From positions 207,419 to 247,324 of the forward strand of contig NZ_HG005167.1 of NCBI RefSeq assembly GCF_000455245.1: a stretch of DNA of 39,906 nt. The letters run 5' to 3'. The DNA is from Nesterenkonia massiliensis. GTDB lineage: Bacteria; Actinomycetota; Actinomycetes; Actinomycetales; Micrococcaceae. The first letter of the stretch is position 1, and the number at the start of each line of letters is the position of its first letter. This document shows positions 1 to 11,249 of this stretch, piece by piece. Made by a program: the position numbers and the translations under genes. The notes beneath the pieces are model-generated. The model ran no database searches. It was given only the letters and a program-made list of their open reading frames with translations, and was not told the origin of the DNA.

Positions 1-1
1 G

Positions 2-1210
2 ATCGCGACGACGGCGGGGCCAGTGGACATGCCCGCCCTGATCGCTGGGAAGCAGGCGCTGGTCGAGTCGCTGCGGGGCGAGAAGTACGCCGACGTCGCC
101 GACTCCTACGGTTGGGCCGTCCGCCGCGGCGACGCCGCGTTCGCCGGCACCCCCGACGCACCGGTCCTCCAGGTCGCCGGGGACGACGGGAGCACCGAGA
201 CGATCGAGGCCGGGCACTACCTGGTCGCGACCGGCTCTCGGCCGTGGGCCCCGCCGATCGACGGCCTGGACCAGACCGGGTACCTGACCTCGACCACGGC
301 GATGGAGCTGACCGAACTCCCTGAGTCCCTGCTCGTGCTCGGCGGCGGCTACGTCGCCCTGGAGCAGGCGCAGCTGTTCGCCCGGCTCGGCTCCCAGGTC
401 ACCGTGCTGGTCCGGTCCCGGCTCGCGTCGAAGGAGGAGCCGGAGGTGTCCAGGACGCTGCAGGAGGTGTTCGCCGACGAGGGCATCCGGGTGGTCCGCC
501 GCGCGCTGCCGACGCGGGTGTCCCGCGACGCCGCGACCGGGCAGGCCGTCGTCACCGCGGACGTCGCCGGCGGCCGGGAGGAGTTCCGCGCCGACCAGGT
601 GCTCGTCGCCCTCGGACGACGACCGGCCACCGATGGGCTCGGCCTCGACAGGGTCGGGGTCAAGACCGGGGACCTCGGCGAGGTGGTCGTCTCCGACCGG
701 ATGCAGTCCTCCCACCCGCGGATCTGGGCCGCGGGCGACGTGACCGGCCACCCCGAGTTCGTCTACGTCGCCGCCCACCACGGCACCCTCGTCGCCGAGA
801 ACGCGTTCGCCGACGCCGATCGGGCCGTGGACTACGCCCGACTGCCGAGGGTGACGTTCACCGGCCCGGCGATCGGCGCGGTCGGGATGACCGAGAAGGA
901 CGTCGTCGCCGCCGGGATCCGCTGCGACTGCCGCGTCCTGCCCCTGCACCACGTGCCCCGCGCACTGGTCAACCGCGACACCCGCGGCTTCGTCAAGATC
1001 GTCGTGGACGCCGACACCGGGAAGATCCTCGGCATCACCGCCGTCGCCAAGGACGCCGGCGAGCTCGCCGCCGCCGGGGTCCACGTGCTCGGCAAGACGG
1101 TCGCCGAGGTCGCCGACGCCTGGGCCCCCTACCTGACCATGGCCGAGGGCATCCGGATCGCCGCCAAGGCCTTCACCACCGACCCGTCGCTCCTGTCGTG
1201 CTGCGCGTGA
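2..1210 (+). CDS. merA: Mercuric reductase, 3' part (5' end outside window)
   Basis: MerA reduces Hg(II) to volatile Hg(0) in the cytoplasm with NADPH and FAD. The frame is open from base 2, so only the last 402 or so residues are seen; the N-terminal FAD-binding part and the redox-active CVNVGC site must lie upstream. Visible marks are the NADPH-binding Rossmann motif (LGGGYVALEQ, positions 346-375), the ALGRRP and AAGDVTG segments typical of the FAD disulfide oxidoreductases, the C-terminal dimerisation domain, and the terminal LLSCCA. That last cysteine pair separates MerA from lipoamide dehydrogenase: it passes Hg(II) to the active site. merB follows 20 bases later in the same direction, so the two are probably co-transcribed. 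No merR is visible; the regulator is presumably upstream. Confidence 0.95.
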   Translation: MATTAGPVDMPALIAGKQALVESLRGEKYADVADSYGWAVRRGDAAFAGTPDAPVLQVAGDDGSTETIEAGHYLVATGSRPWAPPIDGLDQTGYLTSTTAMELTELPESLLVLGGGYVALEQAQLFARLGSQVTVLVRSRLASKEEPEVSRTLQEVFADEGIRVVRRALPTRVSRDAATGQAVVTADVAGGREEFRADQVLVALGRRPATDGLGLDRVGVKTGDLGEVVVSDRMQSSHPRIWAAGDVTGHPEFVYVAAHHGTLVAENAFADADRAVDYARLPRVTFTGPAIGAVGMTEKDVVAAGIRCDCRVLPLHHVPRALVNRDTRGFVKIVVDADTGKILGITAVAKDAGELAAAGVHVLGKTVAEVADAWAPYLTMAEGIRIAAKAFTTDPSLLSCCA

Positions 1211-1230
1211 ACGAACTGGAGGAACCCACG

Positions 1231-1881
1231 ATGTCTGACCTCAGCATGCAACTGCCCGAGCGGCTCAGCCGACTGGGAGAGACCGGCCTGCTCATCCCGC
1301 TGCTGCGGCTGCTCGCCGACGGTGACCCCGTCACCGTCCAACAGCTGTCCGTGGCTGCGGGCCGCACGATCGACGAGGTACGGCTCGGACTGGCCGCGAT
1401 GCAGGACACCGAGTACGACGACCAGGGCCGAATCGTCGGCCAGGGCCTCACGCTGCGCCCTACACCGCACCGGTTCACCGTCGACGGTGAGGAGCTCTAC
1501 ACCTGGTGCGCCCTGGACACCCTCATCTTCCCGGCCCTCCTCGATCGCCCAGCGCGCGTGGAGTCCGTCTCCCCGGCCAGCGGAGAGACGATCCGCGTCA
1601 CCATCGATCCGGTTGCCGGTGTCACCGGCGTCACACCCCCGAGCGCCGTGGTGTCGCTGGTGAACCTGGAGCAGATCACCTCGATCCGCTCGGCCTTCTG
1701 CAACCAGGTGCACTATTTCGCCTCCGTCGACGACGCCACCGGGTGGCTCTCTGAGCATCCCGGTGCCGAGGTGGTGTCGGTGGCCGAGGCCTACCGGATC
1801 GGCAACGAGCTCACAACGAGCCTGCTCGACCTGCTTCAGGACGACACCCCGGTGGCCGACGACTGTCCCCGCTGCTGTTGA
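1231..1881 (+). CDS. merB: Organomercurial lyase
   Basis: MerB breaks the carbon-mercury bond of organomercurials and hands the released Hg(II) to MerA, giving broad-spectrum resistance. The 216-residue protein carries the family's catalytic set: Cys93 and Asp96 in WCALD, and Cys157 in AFCNQVHYF, matching Cys96/Asp99/Cys159 of the plasmid R831b enzyme. The ATG at 1231 is chosen because GGAGG lies about 6 bases upstream; a GTG at 1198 in the same frame would overlap merA and has no ribosome site. The protein ends in DDCPRCC, a cysteine-rich tail that I do not recognise from the classical enzyme and that may help transfer mercury. An N-terminal winged-helix-like part precedes the catalytic domain, as is normal for MerB. 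Confidence 0.94.
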   Translation: MSDLSMQLPERLSRLGETGLLIPLLRLLADGDPVTVQQLSVAAGRTIDEVRLGLAAMQDTEYDDQGRIVGQGLTLRPTPHRFTVDGEELYTWCALDTLIFPALLDRPARVESVSPASGETIRVTIDPVAGVTGVTPPSAVVSLVNLEQITSIRSAFCNQVHYFASVDDATGWLSEHPGAEVVSVAEAYRIGNELTTSLLDLLQDDTPVADDCPRCC

Positions 1882-1910
1882 CCCGCGACACAGAAGGATT
1901 CGAGAACGCT

Positions 1911-2210
1911 ATGACCTCCAAACACGACGACCGAACGCGAGGCGGTGGCCTACTCCTGGGAGCCGGTGCCGTGCTCCTCATGACGATCTGCTGCGCGCTG
2001 CCCGTGCTCATCGCCGGCGGAATGCTTACTGGCATCGGCGGGCTCCTTCTCGGCAACCCGTGGGTGATCGGCGTGGGCATTGCGCTCCTCGCGATCGTGC
2101 TGCTCGTCGTCGTCCGCCGCCGAACCCGCCGCGGCCGTGTCGAACCTGACTGCTGCCCGCCCACCGAATCCGCTCACCGCACCGACCCGAAGGGCGAACA
2201 GAACCAATGA
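1911..2210 (+). CDS. Small two-helix membrane protein, MerF/MerT-like mercury transporter
   Basis: The protein has 99 residues and two predicted membrane helices, about residues 12-37 and 43-69. The first helix holds a vicinal cysteine pair (Cys27-Cys28 in TICCALPVLI), and the cytoplasmic tail holds a second (Cys81-Cys82 in EPDCCPP). Paired cysteines in helix 1 plus a cytosolic pair is the layout of the small mercury importers MerF and MerT, so uptake of Hg(II) for reduction by MerA is the likely role. This is inference from topology and context; overall similarity to named families is weak by eye. The ATG at 1911 is preferred to an in-frame TTG at 1878 that overlaps merB. The stop overlaps the next gene's start (ATGA), which implies translational coupling. 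Confidence 0.75.
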   Translation: MTSKHDDRTRGGGLLLGAGAVLLMTICCALPVLIAGGMLTGIGGLLLGNPWVIGVGIALLAIVLLVVVRRRTRRGRVEPDCCPPTESAHRTDPKGEQNQ

Positions 2211-2725
2211 TCAGCTCCCGCGCCCGTCGTTCGCTCGCCACCCTCCTGCTCGCAGGCTCGCTCATCCTGACCGCCTGCGGCACCGTTGATAAGGATCCCG
2301 TCTCTGCCGAGACTGCCACCGCCGCGACGGTGACCAGCATCGACGCTCAGCGGATCAGCCTGCCCGCCGCCGGGAAGCCCACCGCGGTGTTCTTCTTCTC
2401 CGTCGGCTGCGGCGAATGCGTCGGCGGAGTCCGATCCCTCGGTCAGGCGGCAGCCGCGGCCGAGGAGGCCGGCATCGATGCCCAGTTCCTCGCCGTCGAC
2501 ATGGATCCGCGCGAACCTACCGAGACCATTCAGAGGTTCATGGAGTACGTCGACGCCGTGCATGTCCCCGCCGCCATCGACGAGGGCGCGGCGCTGTCCC
2601 AGCGCTTCGGGGTAGCCGCGCTGTCTACACTGATCATCGTCGACAGTGACGGACAGGTGACCTTCCGCGCCACCGACCCCGACGCCGATACGATCGTCTC
2701 CGCGCTCCACAAGGCCGGGGCCTGA
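2207..2725 (+). CDS. Thioredoxin-fold (TlpA-like) lipoprotein of the mercury operon
   Basis: This 172-residue protein has a lipoprotein signal peptide: basic start, hydrophobic core and lipobox LTAC with Cys24. It should therefore be anchored on the outer face of the membrane. The mature part looks like a TlpA/ResA thioredoxin fold, with FFFSVGCGEC holding a CxxC redox site (Cys68, Cys71), a central LAVDMDP strand, and the region before the cis-Pro loop near GVAALSTLIIVD. It starts inside the stop codon of the MerF-like gene and is followed 3 bases later by a CcdA-like gene, its natural electron donor. I infer that it binds or reduces mercury-thiol species outside the membrane, in the position that MerP fills in Gram-negative operons. 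The substrate is not shown by sequence. Confidence 0.8.
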   Translation: MISSRARRSLATLLLAGSLILTACGTVDKDPVSAETATAATVTSIDAQRISLPAAGKPTAVFFFSVGCGECVGGVRSLGQAAAAAEEAGIDAQFLAVDMDPREPTETIQRFMEYVDAVHVPAAIDEGAALSQRFGVAALSTLIIVDSDGQVTFRATDPDADTIVSALHKAGA

Positions 2726-2728
2726 GCG

Positions 2729-3649
2729 ATGGGCGGACTCCTCGCCCTTGCCTTCGCCGCCGGGATGATCGCCCCCGTCAATCCCTGCGGCTTCGCGCTG
2801 CTCCCGGCCTGGATCACCCATGCGCTGGGCGACGCCGCCTCTTCCTCAGCCCCGGTGCGCCTGCTGCGCGCCCTACGGGCTGGCCTCGCGCTGACGATCG
2901 GGTTTGCGGGCACGCTCGCCTTGGCTGGCGTCGCGGTAAGCGCCGGCGCACGGGGCCTGATCCAGGTCGCCCCAGCCCTCGGCCTCGCCGTCGGGATCCT
3001 GTTGGTGCTGCTCGGCGGGGCGATGCTAGCCGGACGCTCTATGTCCCTCCGGCTTCCCGGCATACCCGGCCGCGCAATCGAACGGCTGCCCAGCGCCGTG
3101 CGCATGGTCGTCTTCGGCGTCGGCTACGCCGCGGCCTCGCTGTCGTGCACCTTCGGCGTACTCCTCGCGGTCATCGCCCAGGCCCAGGCGACAGCCAGTT
3201 TCGTCGGGCTGCTCCTCGTCTTCGCCATCTATGCCGCCGGCTCCGCCACCGTCCTGCTGCTTGTCGCCGTGGTCGCCGCCGTAGCCGGTTCTGTGCTGTC
3301 CAGGCGGATCGCCGCACTGACACGATTCGTTCCCAAGGTCACCGCCGCCGTCCTGATCCTCACCGGCGTCTACCTGGCTTGGTACTGGTTTCCAGTTGTC
3401 GTCGGCGATGCCCCTTCCGCAGGGCGCACCGACGTCGCCGCTGTCTCGGCGACGATATCGAACTGGCTCCAAAGCAACACCGGCGTCATCGCCGGCCTGT
3501 CTACCACCGTGGTGCTCATCGTGCTACTAAGCGGATTCCTTCATCAACGCCGTCGGAACTCCGGACGGAGGACCGAGGAGGACTGCTGCGACCCTCAGTC
3601 GACGCACTCTCCCGGGGACCGGCCGAGCGTGCCGACCGAGCGGCATTGA
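2729..3649 (+). CDS. CcdA/DsbD-like thiol-disulfide transmembrane transporter with cysteine tail
   Basis: This 306-residue multi-spanning protein belongs to the CcdA/DsbD-beta family, which carries electrons from cytoplasmic thioredoxin to extracytoplasmic thiol proteins. The two family cysteines are present: Cys20 in NPCGFALLPA and Cys140 in SLSCTFGV, one in each half of the pseudo-symmetric core. After the usual six helices there is an extra predicted helix (about residues 252-271) and a basic cytoplasmic tail with a vicinal pair, Cys286-Cys287 (EEDCCDP), which is not part of ordinary CcdA. It lies 3 bases after the thioredoxin-like lipoprotein, so the two probably work as a pair. It is the last gene of the mercury operon. 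The tail may bind Hg(II) or receive it from the outer components; this is inference. Confidence 0.8.
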   Translation: MGGLLALAFAAGMIAPVNPCGFALLPAWITHALGDAASSSAPVRLLRALRAGLALTIGFAGTLALAGVAVSAGARGLIQVAPALGLAVGILLVLLGGAMLAGRSMSLRLPGIPGRAIERLPSAVRMVVFGVGYAAASLSCTFGVLLAVIAQAQATASFVGLLLVFAIYAAGSATVLLLVAVVAAVAGSVLSRRIAALTRFVPKVTAAVLILTGVYLAWYWFPVVVGDAPSAGRTDVAAVSATISNWLQSNTGVIAGLSTTVVLIVLLSGFLHQRRRNSGRRTEEDCCDPQSTHSPGDRPSVPTERH

Positions 3650-3815
3650 GCGGCTCCTGCACGTCAAGGTCATACGACGTGGTTGACCGGAACGACGAAC
3701 TCGGACACCAGACGCCCTCCCACCCGACGCCGATCATCGGACACGGCGTGGGTGTTGTTCGTGGCCTATGTCGAAGGAGAGCGCGGCCACGATCAGGACG
3801 AGTTGACCGCCGAGC

Positions 3816-3837
3816 AGAATCGGTGCCGCCCGATTCT
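3816..3837. terminator. Inverted repeat between the converging mer and recombinase operons
   Basis: Perfect 8-base arms AGAATCGG (3816-3823) and CCGATTCT (3830-3837) enclose a 6-base loop. The hairpin sits in the 225-base gap (3650-3874) where the rightward mer operon and the leftward recombinase operon converge, so a shared terminator is plausible. No clear U-run follows on either side. The rest of this gap shows no convincing gene. Confidence 0.4.
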
Positions 3838-3874
3838 CACGACGTGACATCCCTGGAAACGTCATCGTCAGATT

Positions 3875-6463
3875 TCAGTGCAGGACGACTGGGAGGGGCA
3901 TGCCGACGCGCTCGACGACCGCGGCGGCGTAGGCGGTGCTGTTCGCGCCGATCGCGTTGGACCAGGCGATCGCGGAGGAGATGTCCAGGCCAGTCAGCCG
4001 GCTGAGAACGACGGGTGGGAGTTCCTGCGCGAGCGCTATCAGCGCGCCGGTGCGGGCAAGTCGCGGCGGGATGCCGGCAGCGCGGAGCCGGGTATTCAGC
4101 GTGTCGGGGGCCATGTGATGCCCGGCCCGGGTTCCGGGATAGACCCACTCCTGTTCGATGCTCTCCACGAACATGCGAGGCGCGGTGCGGTTGCTGGCGG
4201 CTCCCGCGGCCGCCGGCGCGAGCTCGGCGGGGAGCACGAGAGGTTCCTGGCCGAGGCGGACGACCACGGCCTGGTCCGTGACGGTGACGTCTTCCGCGCG
4301 CAACTGGACGATCTTCGCCGCCCGGACGCCGAACATGAGCATCAGCCCCGCGGCGAGCTTCGTGTGCGGGTTGATGGACGGGTCGGAGGTGACATCGGCG
4401 AGCAGCCGGCAGCGTTCCTCGTCGCTCATGGCTTGCGGGCTCAAGGCTCCTGATGGCGGGCGTGGAGCGGTGAGCGGTCGGGATGCGCCGGCCCGTGCGG
4501 TCCAGGTCAGGAAGTGGTGCAGGAACGGGCGTCGGCCGCCGGTGAGCCATTCATCGACATCCGCCTGGGTGAGGGACACGAGAGAACCTCCGCGGGTATG
4601 GATCCATTCCAGCAGTTCGATGATCCCCGCGATCTCGAGCCGCCGCCAGGACAGCTGGCCTGATCGGGACGGCATCGTGTTGCGGCGCAGTGCGCGCAGG
4701 TGTCGCCATCGCGCGTATTGGGTGACGGTGCGCTGTTCACCCGGGTCGGGGATCTCGGCAAGTGCGCTGTCGAGCCAGAGCTCGAACCGGGCGAGCAGCT
4801 CGTCCCGCGGTGGGAGCAGCCCGTGGTCGATGAGCACGGACCGAACCGCTCGGGTCTGATACTCCGAGCCGGCCTGGTCGAGGTAGGCGTGAGTGCGCAG
4901 GGATGGGGCGGTGAGCACTCGGGTGATCAGCGTGCAGGCGACGGTGCCGCGTTCGAAGGCGTAGACGATCTTCGACGGAGCACCCTGGAACCACCGCTCT
5001 CGCAGATGCGCGATGCGTGCATCGGAGGCGGCGAGCTCGTCGGGCACCATCTCCCGGATCATCTGATCGGCTCGGCAACGGGGGCAGAGCTTCGCGATCA
5101 GCCGTGTGATGGTCCCGCAGCTGGTGCAGGGGCGGAACGACTCCGGTTGGCGGGGATAGCAGAGCGGGCAGAACGGCCGGCCCTCGATCCGGCCGTTCAC
5201 TATCCGAGCGTCTCCGCAGCTTGTGCAGGTCTCGATGATCGGCGGAACGCAGGCCCAGCAGAGATAGCCGGAGCCGTCTTCGGTGCGCTTGTGGCGCAGC
5301 CGGACCTCCCCGCAGCTCACGCAGGGCTGGCGAGGGTTGGAGCACTGCTCGCAGGCGGCGCGCGCGGTTCCCGGCCAGCGGCATTGCCGCTCGGTCCCGC
5401 AGATCGTGCAGGTGTCGACGCTGGCCTTGTCGGAGCAGGGTTTGCAGATCGCTTTCTCGCTGCCGTGGAACAAACAGGGCGCAAGCTCCCCGCAGTCCGT
5501 GCAGGTGTCCAGCCGGGAGGAGCTCCGACACGTTGAACACAGCGGGCCCTCCGGGCTGCGGTAGGCGATCAGTCGATGGTTGCCGCAGCTCACGCAGACG
5601 GCGTTCTCGTCGGGGAGCTTGTTCGTGCAGCGTTGGCAGAGTCGCCGCCCGTCGGAGAGCACCCGCTCCAGGTTGGTGACGTCGTCGCAGCCATCGCAGG
5701 GGGCATGGTGCGCGATCCGGTAGCAGCGTCGGCAGCTCACTCGTCCCTCGACGCGTTCGGTGAGCGTGCGCGTGGTGCCGCAGCCTCCGCAGCGTCGTTC
5801 GGGCAGACGCGCGCCGTCCGCGTGGAGAATGTCGTAGAACGTGCCGAACAGCACAGAGCCCGCGGCCGGGTCGGAGAACCACTCCGCGCCGTGGGCCTGC
5901 AGCTCGAGCATCAGCCGCACTCGGCGGTCCCTCCCGTCCGCCGCCATCTGCTCCACCGCTCGAAGGATGGTCGCGGTCGCGACACGGCGATGGCGGCGGA
6001 CTTGCTCGACGATGCGCTCGGCCGCTTCGGGTTTCATGTCGACCCAGCATCGTTTGCAGTACGCGCTCTCACCGGGCCCTGTCTGCACGCGGCGGGTGTG
6101 CCCGCAACGATCACAGAGTCCGCTCCTGGAAGCGAGACGGCGACCGCATGGAGCGCAGATCCGCCCGGTCGGCGTGCGCTGCAGCAGCTTCCGCAGCCCG
6201 CCGCAGTGTGCGCAACGCGGCGGTCGGACAGTCCGCGCTCCAGCCTCGTGGAGGCGAAGCAACAGACTTGCCAGAGCCGGCGTGGTCTGCGGATCCGCCG
6301 CGGTGAGCAGCCCGGGTGCCTGCGTGACCAGGTCGAGCGTCCGGCGGGCAACCGGCAGCTGCCGGAACGAGCCGTTCACGATCTCGGCGATCCGCTCACG
6401 CGGAAGAGCCTGCTCGACGGCGGCGATCTGCGTGGTCAGCGCGGCGAAGACCGGGTCAAGCAT
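3875..6463 (-). CDS. Ten-zinc-ribbon protein with degenerate tyrosine-recombinase C-terminus
   Basis: The protein has 862 residues. Residues 84-463 hold 20 CxxC motifs spaced as ten zinc ribbons (for example CAHC 84-87, CGGC 225-228, CTSC 446-449, CPRC 460-463). Residues about 570-660 look like a SAM-like core-binding domain and 680-850 like a tyrosine-recombinase catalytic fold. The segment FGVRAAKIVQLRAEDV keeps the box I arginine (Arg713), and WVYPGTRAGH with the following helix matches the integrase core. The box II HxLRH is replaced by LARTGALIA, and the GH motif and tyrosine are not in place (LTGLDISS, then STAY). I infer a non-catalytic DNA-binding partner of the adjacent integrase. 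Its start overlaps the XRE gene by 8 bases. I know no named family with this architecture. Confidence 0.8.
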   Translation of the reverse strand: MLDPVFAALTTQIAAVEQALPRERIAEIVNGSFRQLPVARRTLDLVTQAPGLLTAADPQTTPALASLLLRLHEAGARTVRPPRCAHCGGLRKLLQRTPTGRICAPCGRRLASRSGLCDRCGHTRRVQTGPGESAYCKRCWVDMKPEAAERIVEQVRRHRRVATATILRAVEQMAADGRDRRVRLMLELQAHGAEWFSDPAAGSVLFGTFYDILHADGARLPERRCGGCGTTRTLTERVEGRVSCRRCYRIAHHAPCDGCDDVTNLERVLSDGRRLCQRCTNKLPDENAVCVSCGNHRLIAYRSPEGPLCSTCRSSSRLDTCTDCGELAPCLFHGSEKAICKPCSDKASVDTCTICGTERQCRWPGTARAACEQCSNPRQPCVSCGEVRLRHKRTEDGSGYLCWACVPPIIETCTSCGDARIVNGRIEGRPFCPLCYPRQPESFRPCTSCGTITRLIAKLCPRCRADQMIREMVPDELAASDARIAHLRERWFQGAPSKIVYAFERGTVACTLITRVLTAPSLRTHAYLDQAGSEYQTRAVRSVLIDHGLLPPRDELLARFELWLDSALAEIPDPGEQRTVTQYARWRHLRALRRNTMPSRSGQLSWRRLEIAGIIELLEWIHTRGGSLVSLTQADVDEWLTGGRRPFLHHFLTWTARAGASRPLTAPRPPSGALSPQAMSDEERCRLLADVTSDPSINPHTKLAAGLMLMFGVRAAKIVQLRAEDVTVTDQAVVVRLGQEPLVLPAELAPAAAGAASNRTAPRMFVESIEQEWVYPGTRAGHHMAPDTLNTRLRAAGIPPRLARTGALIALAQELPPVVLSRLTGLDISSAIAWSNAIGANSTAYAAAVVERVGMPLPVVLH

Positions 6464-6812
6464 CCGGCGGGAGAATCTGCGCCCTACGCGGCTTCAGGCC
6501 CGACTCCCGGAGTCGGTTCGTCGCCGAATCGCCCCGCTCCGGCCCAGGATCGGTCGTCCCGGTCGCTGCGACCGCGCTGCCGAGGACCACCCGCGGCGCG
6601 AGCTCCTCGAACGTGCAATCGAAGATGTCCAGCAGCGCGACCAGCGCCTGCATGTTCATCCGCTCCGGCTTCTCCGCGGCGAGCCGATATACCTGGCTCG
6701 TCGACAAGTAGACGCCCCGCTCTTCCAGCAGCGGGACCAGCTTCGTCGTGGAGAACATTCCCGCCGCCGCCATCACCTCCCGAAGCCGCCACTCAAACCC
6801 GATCAGTCTCAT
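6456..6812 (-). CDS. Small XRE/Cro-like helix-turn-helix regulator
   Basis: The protein has 118 residues, with a Cro/C1-type helix-turn-helix in residues about 8-68. The pattern REVMAAAGM...TKLVPLLEERGVYLSTSQVYRL gives the two helices that contact DNA, and MNMQALVALLDIFDCTFEEL is the closing helix pair usual in plasmid and phage XRE proteins. The C-terminal 50 residues are Arg/Pro-rich and probably disordered. The gene lies between the integrase (ATGA overlap at 6809-6812) and the zinc-ribbon gene (8-base overlap), so all three are translated from one message. It may repress the operon or act as an excision factor; the inverted repeats upstream of the integrase are candidate operators. Confidence 0.8.
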   Translation of the reverse strand: MRLIGFEWRLREVMAAAGMFSTTKLVPLLEERGVYLSTSQVYRLAAEKPERMNMQALVALLDIFDCTFEELAPRVVLGSAVAATGTTDPGPERGDSATNRLRESGLKPRRAQILPPDA

Positions 6813-7927
6813 CGCCCGCTCTCTTCCTCATCGCGCGGCCTGTGCCGCGTCTTCTCGATCGCCTGACTCATCATCGTGTTCATGTAGTCCGCGCTCACGC
6901 CCGTATAGATCGCCGTCGTCGACTGGTGCAGGTGCCCGACCTGACGTTGCACGAACGCGGGATCGACCCCGGACTCGATCAGGTGGGTCACGTAGGAATG
7001 ACGCAGCGCGTGCGGCGTCAATACCTCATCCAGCCCCAGCGCCGTCCGGTAGACGGCGAACCTCGACGCCAGCTCCCGCGTGCGCAGCCTCGTCCCGCGT
7101 TCCGAGACCCAGAGCGCCGGCGACCCGTCCCGGACCATCAACGGACGCACCTGCTCGACATACTCCTGAAGAGCCTCAACCGCCCAGCCGAACTACGACA
7201 CGACCGCCCGCCGTTTCGGCGGCCCGCCCCGCGACGACTTCCCGTGCCGGATCTGCATCACACCGAACTCCCCGAACTGTGGAGCCTTCGAATTCCTGTA
7301 GAAGTCGGTCACATCAAGCCCAACCGCCTCGCTCGCCCGCATCCCCCATGCGTAGACGACCTTGAACAGCGTCGCGTCCCGGAACGCAGGCAGAGCACCC
7401 TTGCGGCGCTCGTCCAGCAACCGCGTCACCTCGGCGTCAGCATGATCCAGCAAGCGCTGCAGCTCCGACCGCGTCAACGGGCGTCGCCCCGGCTTGCCCT
7501 CGTAATCCTGCAGGTGCGCGAGCGTGTTCCATTCATGGCAGACCTGAACCGGGTGCGTCCCGAAACGCTCCATGCACTCGTCAACCCAGCCGTAGTGCGG
7601 CGAGCAGATGTAATCGCAGAACGCGCGCACCGCCCCCTGGTACGACCGGATCGTCGACGCTTCGACCTTCCGTTGCGACACCAGCAGCGCCATCCACTCG
7701 TCAAAGTCGCCCGCGGACCACTCCCACGGCTTCTTGCCCGCGTACGACTCGAACCTCCGGACCACGCCCAAAGCGCGCGACACCGAATCCTCCTTGAGAT
7801 GTCGGCCACCGATCTGCTGCATCCGCCAGCCCTCGATCATCGCCTCAAACACGGCCTCATGAGCGTTGAGGAACGACACCCCGCCCGCAAGATACAGTGA
7901 CGACGCACCGTGTGGAACTCGTCCCAT
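6809..7927 (-). pseudogene. Tyrosine recombinase (integrase) interrupted by one in-frame TAG
   Basis: Read through, this is a 372-residue tyrosine recombinase. The N-terminal SAM-like domain is at about residues 25-140 and the catalytic domain follows, with Arg in YAWGMRASEAVGL, HALRHSYVTHL (HxxR), VGH, and Tyr in TTAIYTGV. A TAG at 7193-7195 falls between the first catalytic Arg and box II. The two halves are in the same frame with no other lesion, and the sequence after the stop (FGWAVEALQEYVEQ) reads as integrase. It is either a recent nonsense mutation, an amber codon that is read through, or a sequencing error. The ATG at 7927 is preferred to the TTG just before it. As the first gene of the recombinase operon, it is the likely enzyme for insertion into umuC. 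Confidence 0.85.
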
Positions 7928-8076
7928 CAACCACCCAATCCATCCACATAACGCGCTAATCGTGCATTAGATGCGAATCTATCAGCCCGTCAGACCTCGT
8001 CGCGCGGAAAATCGCGGGGCTATCGAAACGACCGATAGCCTTTCTGACGCAGACGCCCGTTCGGATCTCGCATCTG
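7928..8076. promoter_or_regulatory. Element right-end region with nested inverted repeats and integrase promoter
   Basis: This non-coding stretch separates the integrase from the truncated umuC. Three nested inverted repeats share nearly one centre: 13-base arms 7964-7976 and 8068-8080 (12 of 13 match), 7-base CGTCAGA 7988-7994 with TCTGACG 8043-8049, and perfect 8-base GGCTATCG 8018-8025 with CGATAGCC 8033-8040. The outer right arm contains GCATC-T-GATGC, itself a palindrome. On the minus strand a TAGATT sits directly beside the outer left arm and could be the integrase -10 box, making that arm an operator. Together they look like an attachment site with recombinase and regulator binding sites. 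These roles are inferred. Confidence 0.6.
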
Positions 8077-8080
8077 ATGC
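7964..8080. repeat. Outer inverted repeat of the element end (GCATYAGATGCGA)
   Basis: GCATTAGATGCGA at 7964-7976 and the reverse complement of GCATCAGATGCGA at 8068-8080 differ at one base. The right arm lies within about 10-20 bases of where umuC homology begins (about 8089). It is a candidate core or arm-type integrase site. Confidence 0.65.
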
Positions 8081-9183
8081 AATACCGCGGGGAACTGGGA
8101 TTAGTGGCGCGCTCATCTAACTATGAGCTCTATGGGGATATGAGCCACCGATTCTTACAGGTGATCGCCGAGCACAGCAGTCAGGTGGAGAAGTACAGCA
8201 TCGACGAGGCGTTCGCGCTCTTCGAGGGCCAGCCGCAGGCTGCCCGGAGCTTCGCTGCCGCTGTGAAGACCGATATTGCCCGGAGGCTCGACCTTCCAGT
8301 CGGCGTGGGGCTCGGCGCCACCAAGACCCTGGCCAAGCTGGCAAATCTGGCCGCCAAGAGCATCGGCTGGATGCAGGGAATCTGCGTCTGGGAGGCGCTG
8401 CCGAGTGATTATCGTGTGTCCCTGTTGAAGAGCCTTCCGGTCCAGCAGCTCTGGGGTGTGGGCCGACGCAGCGCTGCCAAACTCGAAGCACTGGGGATCA
8501 CCACTGCAGCTGACCTCAAAGCGGCGGATCCGCAGCTCATTCGACGCCGCCATGGGCTCCCGCTGATGCGCACGGTGATGGAGTTGAACTCCCAGCCGTG
8601 TATCGAGCTGGAAGAAGAGAGAGAGTTCCGGGACTCGCTGGTCTTCAGCCGGTCCTTCTCGGCACCGGTGACCACGCGCGAGGTGATGGATCAGGTGCTT
8701 TCCAGCTATGCCCAGCGGGCCTGTTCGCGCCTGAACAAGCGCAGTACCGAAGCGCGTACGGTAACGGCCTGGGCCATGACTTCATGGCACAGTACGGGAC
8801 CAGAAGTCGAAAGTGCTTTCCATTCGCCGTCGGCGACCGCCTCCCTGCCCTCACCGACCAGCGACCCGGTGACGTTGATCCGGGCGGCGAAGCGACTTCT
8901 GCCCTTAATCGAGGAAGGCCGGCGCTACACCAAAGCCGGAATCACGCTGACCGGTCTTTCGCCGGCTGGTCAGCAGGCAGCCTTCGATCTGTTTACCCCA
9001 GACCAGGACAGCCGCGCCCTGGGGCCGTTGATGGAAGAAGTCCGCGCTCGGGCGGGAGCCGAAGCCATCGGGTTAGGACGCGGAGGACTGCGCACCGCAG
9101 CCGACTGGGAGATGAGACGCGAAATGATGAGCCCGAGATACACCACCCGATGGGATGAAGTCCTCGAAGTCAGGGCCTGTTGA
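8077..9183 (+). pseudogene. umuC: UmuC-like Y-family DNA polymerase, 5' truncated
   Basis: UmuC is the catalytic subunit of translesion polymerase V. The frame keeps ARSSNYELYGDMS, the catalytic SIDEAF, the VGVGLGATKTLAKLAN region, the helix-hairpin-helix near LWGVGRRSAAKLEALGI, the little-finger domain and the family's C-terminal module ending MRREMMSPRYTTRWDE. The first 55-60 residues are missing, including the palm strand with the first metal-binding Asp (LVDxNxFY). Family homology starts near 8089, and the ATG at 8077 has no ribosome site and comes from the junction sequence. The polymerase should therefore be inactive. I infer that the element on the left inserted into umuC; the missing 5' part should lie beyond the other end of the element. 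Confidence 0.88.
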
Positions 9184-9198
9184 GGCTTAGGCTCAGCA

Positions 9199-9212
9199 GG
9201 GCTGCACAGCCC
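9199..9212. terminator. Small hairpin between umuC remnant and M3 peptidase
   Basis: GGGCTG (9199-9204) and CAGCCC (9207-9212) form a 6-base stem with a 2-base loop in the 32-base gap between two converging genes. A terminator is possible, but the loop is too tight to be sure. Confidence 0.25.
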
Positions 9213-9215
9213 AGG

Positions 9216-11249
9216 TCACGCCAGTCCTAGGCTGCGCAGCAGAGGCTCCACCTGGGGATCACGCCCCACTGCTTGGCGGTAGGACTCCAGCGGATCCCGG
9301 GTATTGCCCCGGGAGAGAAGTTGAGTCCGGAAATGCGCGCCGCGGCGGGCCAATGCCGCCTCGTCGTTGAGCACCTCACGGAACCACTCGCTGGCATCTG
9401 CGGCCAGCACCTCAGCCCACAAGTAGGAGTAATAGCCGGCTGCGTAGCCCGAGCTGGCGAAGATGTGCTTAAAGAAGCCGCTGGAGTACCGCGGCGGCAC
9501 AAGGTCGAGGTCTAAGCCCCACTCAGCCAGTGCTCGCTGTTCGAATCCGCGGGGATCCTGCAGGGCTTCTTCGGCCTGGTCGGGTGTGAGGCTATGCCAG
9601 GCAATATCAATGACCACAGCGGCTACATGCTCAACCGTGCTCAGCCCCTTGCCCCAGAGCTCCCGCTCAGAAGGTACTGCGCCTGGGCGTGTGGGGGTGG
9701 GGGAGTAGAGATCCTGAAAGACCTCATTGACCTGCGAAGGGAACTCCACATTGTCCCGGGGGACCGCAGTGCCCGATAGCTCCTCGAACTCTGCAGCAGC
9801 AAGAAGCCCGTGCAACGCATGACCGAACTCATGGAAGAGCGTCTTGTGCTCCCCGGCCGAGAGCATAGTGGGCTGACCCGGCGCTGGAGGAGAAACATTC
9901 AAGCAGTTGATGACCACTGGACGGGTTCCCGTGAGTTCAGAAGCGACGGCGAAGGAGTTCATCCAGGCACCGCCGGACTTGGTGGGACGGGAGTGGATAT
10001 CCAACAGGAACAAGCCGATGCCGGTGCCTGCGTCACCGGGTGCGCCGTCGAAGACCTCAAAGCTGCGGGCCCCTGGGACGAATCCCGGGAGGTCCTCCCG
10101 TTCCACCACGTGAATCCCGTAGGTCCGCTGTGCGGCGTCGAAGACTCGAGTCAAGGCCTGATCAAGAGTGATCGGAAATGCCGGGGTAGCTGATTCCGCC
10201 TCAGCAGAAGCTGGAACCGGCTTTAAGCGATGAATCCAGTAGGACATATCCCAGGCGGCCAGGTCATCGCCGAGACCACTGGTCTCGGCGATAGTCGAGG
10301 CTTCCCGCTGGAGTCGCTGAACCGCCCCGGCTGCGATCTTCTCCAGCATCTCCTTCACCGCTTCGGTGCTCGGGGCGGTGCGTAGCGGGAGGACGGACTC
10401 GAAGTAGTTGCTGAAGCCCAGCAGCTGTGCCTTCTGCGCGCGAAGGGAGGCGATGCTGGCGCCGATGTCATAGGTGGTGCGGCCATCATCTCCGGCCAGG
10501 CTTCCGCGGCCCACGGACGCCTCATGCAGGCGACGGCGGGTCTGGCGATTCTGCAACTGGGCCAGGGCCTGCTGTTGGACGGGCATCGTCAGACTCAGCA
10601 GGTAACCATCACGGTGACCGGCAGTCTTGGCAGCCGCAGCAGCGGCATCAATCTGGCCGGAATCGAGGCCTTCGAGCTCCTCGCGGCGCTGCACGAAGAG
10701 CGCCCGCTCCACAACTTCGCGGGACTGCAGCTGCTGATAAGCGGTCTCTTCAGCAGCTAAACGCTGATTCAGCTCAAGAAGTCGGGCGCGGTCGGACTCA
10801 TTTAGGGCCGCACCGGCAGCCTCTGCCTGGACCAGCTGCTGCTGGAGCATCCAGCGCTGTTCAGCTGATGCCTCCACCTCTCCGGCACTCAGCCGGTCGT
10901 GGAGCTGACGGAATCGAGCATTGAGCTGAGGGTGCAGTGCGATCCAGTCCTCATGCGCTGCGCGCTGAGGGGCGAGCTCGGCATAGACCTGCTGTCGGGC
11001 CTCAGTAGCGTGGGCAGAATAGACACATGAGAAAGCGCGCATGGCTGAGTTCAGCAAAGCCCCGGAGCGACCGAAGGCATGAAGCGTGTTAGCTACAGTT
11101 GCTGGCTCTCCCGCAGCGGCAATGGTCTCAATCTCTTCCTTGTGACGGGCAAAACCGGCAGCAAAGACGCTCAGCCAGGCCGCGTCGTCGAAGGCGGTCA
11201 GATCTGGGTAGCCATAGTCCAGAGACCGGGGAGGGAATGTCTGTGCCAC
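9216..11249 (-). CDS. dcp: M3 family zinc peptidase (peptidyl-dipeptidase Dcp-like)
   Basis: This is a cytoplasmic oligopeptidase of family M3 that removes dipeptides or trims short peptides in protein turnover. Counting from the upstream in-frame GTG at 11258, the zinc site HEFGH is at residues 476-480 and the third ligand Glu is near 505 in VEFPSQVNE, the FPSQ segment being typical of M3. The full length of about 680 fits Dcp/PrlC. I place the start at the GTG at 11249 because AAAGG lies about 8 bases before it, while the 11258 GTG overlaps that site. A good promoter lies just upstream (see 11283-11310). The gene runs leftward and diverges from yebC. Confidence 0.92.
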   Translation of the reverse strand: MAQTFPPRSLDYGYPDLTAFDDAAWLSVFAAGFARHKEEIETIAAAGEPATVANTLHAFGRSGALLNSAMRAFSCVYSAHATEARQQVYAELAPQRAAHEDWIALHPQLNARFRQLHDRLSAGEVEASAEQRWMLQQQLVQAEAAGAALNESDRARLLELNQRLAAEETAYQQLQSREVVERALFVQRREELEGLDSGQIDAAAAAAKTAGHRDGYLLSLTMPVQQQALAQLQNRQTRRRLHEASVGRGSLAGDDGRTTYDIGASIASLRAQKAQLLGFSNYFESVLPLRTAPSTEAVKEMLEKIAAGAVQRLQREASTIAETSGLGDDLAAWDMSYWIHRLKPVPASAEAESATPAFPITLDQALTRVFDAAQRTYGIHVVEREDLPGFVPGARSFEVFDGAPGDAGTGIGLFLLDIHSRPTKSGGAWMNSFAVASELTGTRPVVINCLNVSPPAPGQPTMLSAGEHKTLFHEFGHALHGLLAAAEFEELSGTAVPRDNVEFPSQVNEVFQDLYSPTPTRPGAVPSERELWGKGLSTVEHVAAVVIDIAWHSLTPDQAEEALQDPRGFEQRALAEWGLDLDLVPPRYSSGFFKHIFASSGYAAGYYSYLWAEVLAADASEWFREVLNDEAALARRGAHFRTQLLSRGNTRDPLESYRQAVGRDPQVEPLLRSLGLA

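What the first reader, a model, noticed from the sequence alone, without database searches (positions are those of the whole stretch)
3875..7927. Three-gene recombination module: integrase, XRE regulator, ten-zinc-ribbon degenerate recombinase
Three overlapping leftward genes form one translational unit. The third is an 862-residue protein with 20 CxxC motifs, about ten zinc ribbons, joined to a recombinase-like C-terminus that keeps the box I Arg713 but has lost HxLRH and the usual tyrosine context. Trios of recombinases are known (Tn554 TnpABC, RIT elements), but a partner made of a zinc-ribbon array on a dead recombinase fold, with an XRE protein between, is not one I can name. It may be an architectural or targeting subunit for the active integrase. 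The architecture is read from sequence; the role is inference.
Basis: partly seen in the sequence, partly recalled or inferred. Interest (0 to 1): 0.8.

Follow-up and report, generated by a model that had tools for sequence, protein, structure and literature searches.

The report
Three-gene mobility module of actinobacterial transposons
These three genes look like the moving machinery of a mercury-resistance DNA element whose near-identical copies sit in unrelated genes of several bacterial genera; one of the three proteins is an inactive copy of the cutting enzyme carrying ten predicted zinc-binding modules, and its job is still unknown.

Summary
An integrase (Int), an XRE/HTH protein and an 862-aa protein (ten CxxC pairs plus C-terminal domain) overlap leftward. 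Corrections: Int has an in-frame TAG (7193-7195); the box I Arg is residue 714.

The trio recurs in fixed order: in 40 of 43 loci fetched by Int or Int-XRE searches the third gene follows; the other three loci end first. The model of residues 466-862 matches tyrosine recombinases in 50 of 50 rows shown, but the family lacks the catalytic set.

The trio belongs to an ~8.9-kb mercury-resistance element interrupting umuC. Copies 99.4% identical sit in dprA or a DUF7882 gene in other genera, with exact junctions. A short-form relative exists as a free 4,712-bp circle plus tandem copies in one strain; some short forms lie beside dif.

Such trios in umuDC of three Arthrobacter plasmids were called 'XER modules' in 2018 (PMC6305408); pairing active with inactive recombinases is known (SE, GInt); umuC is a known island site. 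New here: the zinc-module array, the single active recombinase, dprA/dif targets, exact ends, breadth. The protein's role is inference.

The parts
1..8094 (.). Element body inside the window; its other end lies 852 bases left of the window (L011:19148). Last element base is 8094.
   Evidence: four copies at 99.4% (L060, L063, L064, L065) with different flanks break at these points; for the left end
23..1210 (+). Cargo: mercuric reductase (merA; 5' part lies left of the window across a 25-N stretch)
1198..1881 (+). Cargo: organomercurial lyase (merB)
   Evidence: Pfam MerB E 5.4e-36
1878..2210 (+). Cargo: small protein, no Pfam match
2207..2725 (+). Cargo: redoxin/thioredoxin-like protein
   Evidence: Redoxin E 1.5e-10
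2729..3649 (+). Cargo: CcdA-like membrane protein (name from annotated homologues)
   Evidence: no Pfam match
3875..6463 (-). ZnR: 862-aa protein, helical N-terminal segments, ten CxxC pairs (84-463), predicted tyrosine-recombinase fold 466-862 without the catalytic set
6456..6812 (-). XRE/Cro-CI-type HTH protein, 118 aa
   Evidence: HTH_26 E 6.8e-11
6809..7927 (-). Int: XerC/D-like tyrosine recombinase gene, interrupted by an in-frame stop
   Evidence: intact relatives
7193..7195 (-). In-frame TAG stop inside Int
7964..7974 (.). GCATTAGATGC (GCATCTAATGC on the minus strand), palindrome-like motif just upstream of Int; candidate XRE operator
8070..8080 (.). GCATCTGATGC, the same kind of motif at the int-proximal end of the element
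8081..8094 (.). int-proximal terminal sequence AATACCGCGGGGAA, identical in six near-identical copies (window, L060, L061, L063, L064, L065)
8095..9183 (+). 3' part of the interrupted umuC (DUF4113 type); 5' part is at L011:18950-19147

Best explanation
The trio is the recombination module of a family of actinobacterial integrative elements (the 'XER modules' of PMC6305408). SHOWN by sequence: the module sits at one end of a cargo-carrying element; the window element interrupts umuC; near-identical copies occupy other genes in other genera with exact junctions and no duplication seen; a short-form relative is on record as a free circle and as tandem integrated copies in one strain. PREDICTED: the third protein has a tyrosine-recombinase fold without the catalytic set. 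INFERRED: Int, the only catalytic recombinase, excises the element as a circle and reinserts it. The inactive ZnR protein fills part of the synaptic complex and, through its recombinase fold and zinc modules, helps hold the element ends and/or choose the target. The XRE protein binds the GCATCNGATGC motifs at the int end and at the Int promoter, linking expression (and perhaps direction) to occupancy of the end. In this window the Int gene is broken, so this copy is probably immobile on its own.
For: Order: of 43 loci fetched by searching for Int (30 of 45 places) or Int-XRE DNA (13), 40 show Int-XRE-ZnR on one strand; L105, L154 and L159 end before the next gene. Fold. Catalytic residues R, K, H, R, H, Y are invariant in 9 of 9 Int; in 49 ZnR the box I Arg is present in 11, and at the position I assign to the nucleophile there is no Tyr (Trp 28, His 19, Val 1, Phe 1). 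Mobility: L060, L063, L064, L065 match the element at 99.4% over about 8.95 kb, with different flanks. Exact restoration: joined umuC flanks of the window give 21 residues from the conserved W to E, as in all 13 intact umuC found among 16 loci; the two pieces of the DUF7882 gene match Pfam positions 1-54 and 56-96. Circle: NZ_CP094493.1 (4,712 bp: trio plus three hypothetical genes) matches two tandem copies on another plasmid of the same strain at 100%. Motif: 28 of 46 distinct Int upstream regions hold CATCNGATG (up to 1 mismatch), against a mean of 8.8 and maximum of 16 in 100 Markov simulations.
Against: No experiment shows movement, and no role of ZnR or XRE was tested. Sequence profiles of ZnR and Int do not align significantly with each other (hhalign E 0.23), Pfam recognises the recombinase domain in only 11 of 49 ZnR members, and Foldseek TM-scores are modest (0.23-0.47 by query), so the relationship rests on predicted fold. 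The window copy has a broken Int. 18 of 46 upstream regions lack the motif. The joined umuC frame of L067 does not run on. The circle record could be an assembly by-product of the tandem copies; it is 2 bp shorter than the tandem repeat unit (4,712 against 4,714). Part of the spread went with larger DNA.
Confidence: 0.7

Rival explanations
1. ZnR is a DNA-binding regulator or silencer that merely travels with Int; Int (with or without XRE) does all the recombination.
For: Zinc modules and dead catalytic domains are common in regulators (general knowledge). The number of CxxC varies from 1 to 20 between members, as if loosely constrained.
Against: Order and strand hold in 40 of 43 loci fetched without using ZnR, the other three being cut short; the recombinase fold keeps near-invariant residues (R804 47 of 49, Y845 49 of 49). 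In GInts all four gin genes, ginC included, are reported essential (PMC10214605, Background part 1 read).
Confidence: 0.2
2. The trio is a plasmid or chromosome dimer-resolution system rather than a transposition module.
For: Int is XerC/D-like; some short forms lie next to dif-like sites; many hits are on plasmids.
Against: Copies at 99.4% with mercury cargo interrupt unrelated genes (dprA, DUF7882, and umuC in the window) in several genera with sharp ends. A resolution system would not do that.
Confidence: 0.05
3. The elements are moved by the host XerC/D at dif (as in IMEX), and Int/XRE/ZnR are accessory.
For: 11 of 60 loci have a dif-like site (up to 3 mismatches) within 450 nt upstream of Int. 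Two YJN-5 copies sit beside two different dif-like sites.
Against: The insertion point is outside the dif core, next to the XerD arm, and both arms and centre remain on one side of the element. No dif-like site was found in the loci with umuC or dprA insertions. Int has a complete catalytic set.
Confidence: 0.05

Closest known systems
'XER modules' of Antarctic Arthrobacter plasmids pA2H2, pA8H1, pA40H2 (PMC6305408)
   Same: Same three genes in the same order, cargo behind them, inserted in umuDC; pA8H1 is locus L006/L013 here. ZnR of the three plasmids is 35.5% identical to P0001.
   Different: In the passages read the paper calls the recombinase-like proteins XerD and XerC and does not report an inactive fold, zinc ribbons, dprA or dif targets, or copies outside these plasmids.
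umuC islands of Gammaproteobacteria (ICEPan, Erwinia plasmids; PMC4458695, passages read)
   Same: Islands interrupt umuC; xerC and xerD genes lie beside the umuC fragment; similar islands in other ICEs carry mercury resistance.
   Different: Inserted after UmuC residue 88 or 37, here after residue 66; no XRE gene or zinc array is described in the passages read.
Strand-biased circularizing integrative elements (SE; IntA, Tfp, IntB, Srap; PMC10214605)
   Same: An operon at one end of the element; a recombinase-fold protein lacking the catalytic set (Tfp) beside active recombinases; a small auxiliary protein; few selected target sites; circular form.
   Different: SE has two active recombinases and a 6-bp donor-derived footprint. 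Here there is one active recombinase, a zinc-module array, an XRE protein, and constant ends with no donor footprint seen. Tfp/Srap blocks are reported from Gammaproteobacteria but not other taxa.
GInt genomic islands (ginABCD; PMC5385486)
   Same: GinC is a recombinase relative lacking part of the catalytic set; ginABCD lie at the 5' end and cargo follows.
   Different: Two active recombinases plus GinD. No zinc array or XRE gene is described in the passages read.
Tn554 (TnpA, TnpB, TnpC) and Tn554-related actinobacterial elements (PMC3414803)
   Same: Three-gene recombinase module, one long recombinase, one small protein, site-specific.
   Different: Both Tn554 recombinases carry the catalytic motif, and a 6-bp footprint is brought in (PMC10214605; 7 bp for Tn552-II, PMC12486829). 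Here the long protein is inactive and carries zinc modules.
RIT elements (RitA, RitB, RitC)
   Same: Three adjacent, overlapping genes.
   Different: All three RIT families show a possible catalytic motif (PMC3414803, passages read).

Membership tests
XER modules (PMC6305408) | Core of tyrosine recombinase, XRE regulator and second recombinase-like gene, in that order | tested here: met
   pA8H1 itself is one of the loci
XER modules (PMC6305408) | Cargo genes behind the core and insertion in umuDC | tested here: met
   window element lies inside umuC with mer cargo (the paper says between umuC and umuD; pA8H1 has one module there and one inside umuC)
SE elements | Four core genes: two active recombinases, Tfp, Srap | tested here: not met
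   No second recombinase seen among the ORFs of the window element; none annotated in pAP13 between the umuC halves
SE elements | 6-bp donor-derived footprint | tested here: not met
   terminal sequences are the same in six near-identical copies at five target contexts; umuC keeps its native length. A footprint of up to 3 nt at the int side is not excluded
SE elements | Sequence homology of Tfp/Srap | not tested
   SE proteins were not fetched
GInt | ginA, ginB, ginC, ginD operon with two active recombinases | tested here: not met
   one active recombinase only
Tn554 / Tn554-related | Two active tyrosine recombinases | tested here: not met
   ZnR lacks the catalytic set
Tn554 / Tn554-related | TnpC homologue | not tested
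   XRE protein was not compared with TnpC
RIT | Three recombinases | tested here: not met
   the second gene is an HTH protein, the third inactive
Gamma-mobile-trio | GmtY / GmtZ curated models | tested here: not met
   Int matches GmtY and GmtZ far below their cut-offs (27.7 of 340; 21.3 of 600 bits); P0001, three ZnR relatives and the XRE protein match no Gmt model
Tyrosine recombinase fold | C-terminal domain folds as core-binding plus catalytic domains | tested here: met
   predicted, not solved
Active tyrosine recombinase | R-K-H-R-H/W-Y set | tested here: not met
   ZnR: box I Arg 11 of 49, HxxR Arg 47 of 49, His of HxxR not conserved, no Tyr at the expected position. Y845, 49 of 49, lies 11 residues further on

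The most novel reading that the evidence does not exclude
The inactive recombinase with its zinc-module array is a diversifying target selector: about three modules in the short form go with insertion beside dif, and expansion to about ten goes with a shift to sites in coding genes (umuC, dprA, DUF7882). It may read DNA some 30 bp beyond the crossover, where TAYGG is found in 9 of 10 sites. Cutting and target choice would then lie in separate proteins, unlike any tyrosine-recombinase element I know of.
Probability: 0.2. Interest if true: 0.85.

Novelty: new variant of a known kind. Interest (0 to 1): 0.62.

Why it matters
Several element families carry an inactive recombinase beside active ones (SE Tfp, GInt GinC), and what it does is open. 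This family has a single active recombinase, an inactive partner that varies from 1 to 20 CxxC motifs, mapped ends, several kinds of target (umuC, dprA, DUF7882, upstream of lsr2, beside dif) and a circle on record, so the question can be tested by trimming or exchanging the inactive partner. It also identifies a frequent, mostly unannotated carrier of metal resistance and other cargo (Int at E 1e-70 in 37 of 396 genomes of the order, 24 of 109 genera) and explains interrupted umuC and dprA genes.

Tried and rejected
Sequence-only proof of the fold: Pfam on P0001 was below the cut-off, profile-profile against Int gave no match, and PDB sequence search reached only Cre at E 0.084. The structure route settled it.

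Whole-site similarity between unrelated targets: of eight right-side pairs one was modestly high (matched by a fraction of 0.0465 of random pairs); of five left-side pairs two were (0.009 and 0.0465); the rest were unremarkable. The TAYGG observation was made after looking and is not a planned test: random windows hold it in 0.9%, 9 of 10 sites hold it, L067 (umuC) does not. T at +8 and G at +13 hold in 9 of 10; the lsr2-upstream site has neither. The ten sites are only four unrelated loci.

A 6-bp SE/Tn554-type footprint was looked for and not found. Ribbon number against dif: 0 of 26 loci with 11 or more CxxC are dif-adjacent against 10 of 32 with 7 or fewer (Fisher P 0.0013). Two of the 60 loci without a ZnR read were dropped (one of them dif-adjacent); CxxC counts of loci cut short are lower bounds; L161 is scored as not adjacent because its second tandem copy stood for both. 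The Int tree puts all 11 dif loci in one 23-row clade, so this is a few evolutionary events, not 58 independent ones.

No match to P0001 in 50,697 phage records. Own genome: no exact dif-like pattern, so nothing could be said of dif there.
Full report
OBSERVATION. Three genes overlap on the minus strand between 3875 and 7927. The first is a XerC/D-like tyrosine recombinase (Int), but its frame holds a TAG at 7193-7195; the two pieces, searched apart, each match Phage_integrase (E 5.3e-4 and 5.4e-18). The second is a 118-aa Cro/CI-type HTH protein (HTH_26, E 6.8e-11). The third (ZnR) has 862 residues and 20 CxxC in ten pairs between residues 84 and 463. The box I Arg is residue 714, not 713.

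FOLD. Foldseek against the PDB gives 89 matches at E 10 and 15 at E 0.001 or better, best XerH 5jk0 at 4.5e-5; all 50 rows shown are tyrosine recombinases. TM-scores are modest (0.23-0.47 by query). The full-length model (pLDDT 82.4, pTM 0.41) shows repeated strand-strand-helix units over the CxxC region, which resemble treble-clef fingers as much as ribbons; zinc itself is inferred.

INACTIVITY. In 49 ZnR proteins the Arg of HxxR (R804) is present in 47, the box I Arg in 11; the His of HxxR is not conserved; and the nucleophile position, by spacing from R804 and the LxG motif (my assignment), is Trp in 28, His in 19, Val and Phe in one each. Y845 is invariant (49 of 49), 11 residues further along; its function is unknown. 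In nine Int relatives R, K, H, R, H and Y are invariant. The family has thus kept an inactive recombinase while varying from 445 to 864 matched residues and from 1 to 20 CxxC (53 distinct sequences with open frames, of 65 before removing duplicates).

RECURRENCE. tblastn of ZnR finds 234 of 72,556 plasmid records, 46 with at least 80% cover; 11 of 58 relatives; 24 of 396 genomes of the order at E 1e-30; 23 of 296 of the phylum by profile at E 0.001, six of them marginal (E 5e-6 or worse); none of 50,697 phage records. Int at E 1e-70 occurs in 37 of 396 genomes of the order (45 places, 30 fetched). Loci fetched through ZnR contain it by design, so the fair count is of loci fetched through Int or Int-XRE DNA: 29 of 30 and 11 of 13 show Int-XRE-ZnR on one strand, and L105, L154 and L159 end before the next gene. 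Over everything, redundant and ZnR-fetched loci included, 101 of 112 XRE hits have Int before and ZnR behind; the 11 others are mostly loci that begin or end nearby, with L004 (one module inside another), L062 (no Int) and L045. Of 60 Int-XRE loci after removing exact duplicates (near-copies remain) 58 continue into ZnR.

ELEMENT. Left of the window (L011, adjacent in the genome) lie umuD and the first 198 bases (66 codons) of umuC, then the element: a MerR-type gene (my reading of the ORF), merA, merB, three further genes, and the trio; window position 8095 resumes umuC. The same element, 99.4% identical over about 8.95 kb, is found in Microbacterium nanhaiense, Microbacterium sp. VKM Ac-2870, Kocuria soli and Enemella evansiae; in Nesterenkonia alkaliphila it is 99.84% identical over 5,586 bp around the trio and 94.7% over 10.6 kb with flanks. 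The ends are the same in all these: TTCCCCGCGGTATTGCATCAG at the Int side and CGCGCACTACCAATA at the other. Sizes between the ends are 8,907-8,908 bp, and 8,946 in the window genome, where a 25-N stretch in merA explains most of the excess.

TARGETS. umuC: window, N. alkaliphila, Brevibacterium pAP13, Microbacterium CH12i (L067), second copy of pA8H1; only the 5' part was seen in L062 and L070. dprA: L060, L064, L065, L066/L068, L071; only the 3' part in L004. A DUF7882 gene in L063, its two pieces matching Pfam positions 1-54 and 56-96, and a site just upstream of lsr2 in L092. Removing the element restores umuC to the 21-residue spacing seen in all 13 intact umuC recognised among 16 loci; in dprA of L060, L064 and L065 and in umuC of N. 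alkaliphila and pAP13 the joined frame also runs through. In L067 it does not, and for L063, L066 and L068 the script's longest frame was not the target's. No direct repeat or duplication is visible at the junctions read. L064 and L065 share 99.88% of 8,366 bp on one flank but only 79% on the other, and L066 and L068 share both flanks at about 99%, so part of the spread went with larger DNA.

CIRCLE AND dif. Paenarthrobacter ureafaciens AT has a 4,712-bp circular record with a short-form trio, three hypothetical genes and no annotated replication gene. Its plasmid pA holds two tandem copies, 100% identical to it, with 2 more bases at the tandem joint. Paenarthrobacter YJN-5 has 94.4% copies on two plasmids with different flanks. 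These copies lie directly beside GCCGATAAN6TTATGTMAA, which I recognise from memory as the actinobacterial dif (XerCD) site. In YJN-5 both copies carry the same seven bases (CCAATAG) between the dif arm and the element, while the far flanks differ, so this spacer appears to travel with the Int-side end. The long forms agree: their Int-side end is constant and the far side is native target. Of the 60 loci, 11 are dif-adjacent; the 10 of these in which ZnR was read have six CxxC or fewer. In an Int tree of 81 rows all 11 dif rows fall in one supported clade of 23, the rest short forms, and 21 of the 30 long forms with one short one form a clade of 22; nine long forms lie elsewhere, so length changed more than once.

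XRE MOTIF. GCATCNGATGC-like palindromes occur at the Int-side end and again just before Int. CATCNGATG with up to one mismatch is present in 28 of 46 distinct upstream regions, against a mean of 8.8 and maximum of 16 in 100 simulations. That XRE binds it is inference.

MECHANISM. Most likely Int is the cutter. It forms a circle from the element ends and inserts it at a preferred site. ZnR, unable to cut, is likely a structural and targeting partner; XRE is a regulator and possibly a directionality factor. Ends, circle record and targets are shown by sequence; the division of labour is not.

KNOWN WORK. PMC6305408 (passages) described such modules in three Arthrobacter plasmids as possible novel integrative elements. 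PMC4458695 (passages) describes islands with xerC and xerD in umuC of gammaproteobacterial ICEs and plasmids, so umuC as an island site is not new. PMC10214605 (abstract, Background part 1, Discussion and passages) and PMC5385486 (passages) describe SE and GInt with Tfp and GinC, recombinase-fold proteins lacking all or part of the catalytic set. PMC3414803 (passages) describes Tn554-related and RIT elements; PMC12486829 (passages) the att brought in by Tn552-II. The passages of PMC8138268 do not mention this family. Ten library searches brought no other paper whose listing pointed to this trio; papers not named here were seen as listings only, and the library lacks most subscription papers.

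VERDICT. A real and widespread family, so far (in what I could search) described only in passing: a new variant of the multi-protein tyrosine-recombinase elements.

Noticed in passing
L011 19975-19999 / window 1: 25 N at the left edge of the window inside merA with a short repeated stretch on either side; looks like a scaffold gap and would explain most of the 38-base excess of this copy.
   Followed up: partly
L145 (G000:C4:284000-298821), 7926-9789: A second, diverged trio in the same genome: Int and XRE open, ZnR cut short at 131 residues.
   Followed up: partly
L146 and L161: Paenarthrobacter ureafaciens AT: a 4,712-bp circle and two tandem integrated copies of the same trio element.
   Followed up: yes
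L064 and L065: Kocuria soli and Enemella evansiae share 99.88% of 8,366 bp on one side of the element but only 79% on the other, so a larger piece may have moved with one flank.
   Followed up: no
L004 449-8544: One trio appears to be inserted in the Int gene of another trio, near the end of its catalytic region (Pseudonocardia plasmid).
   Followed up: no
L165-L168: A 50-kb circular plasmid of strain AT (atrazine and mercury genes) shares a 60-bp end-like stretch (88%) with the trio element; in strain AT5 genes of that plasmid adjoin the same dif-like site that carries the tandem copies in strain AT.
   Followed up: partly
window 3929-3931 (ZnR residue 845): Tyrosine invariant in 49 of 49 family members, 11 residues beyond the expected nucleophile position; could be structural or an unusual nucleophile.
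   Followed up: no
L092: Trio element of genome G428 sits just upstream of an lsr2 gene.
   Followed up: partly
L147 (NZ_CP050438.1): 13.7-kb circular Streptomyces record with a long-form trio and no annotated replication gene; may be another circular form or a plasmid.
   Followed up: no
L013 1371-9565: pA8H1 carries two modules in its umuDC: one between umuD and umuC, one inside umuC.
   Followed up: partly
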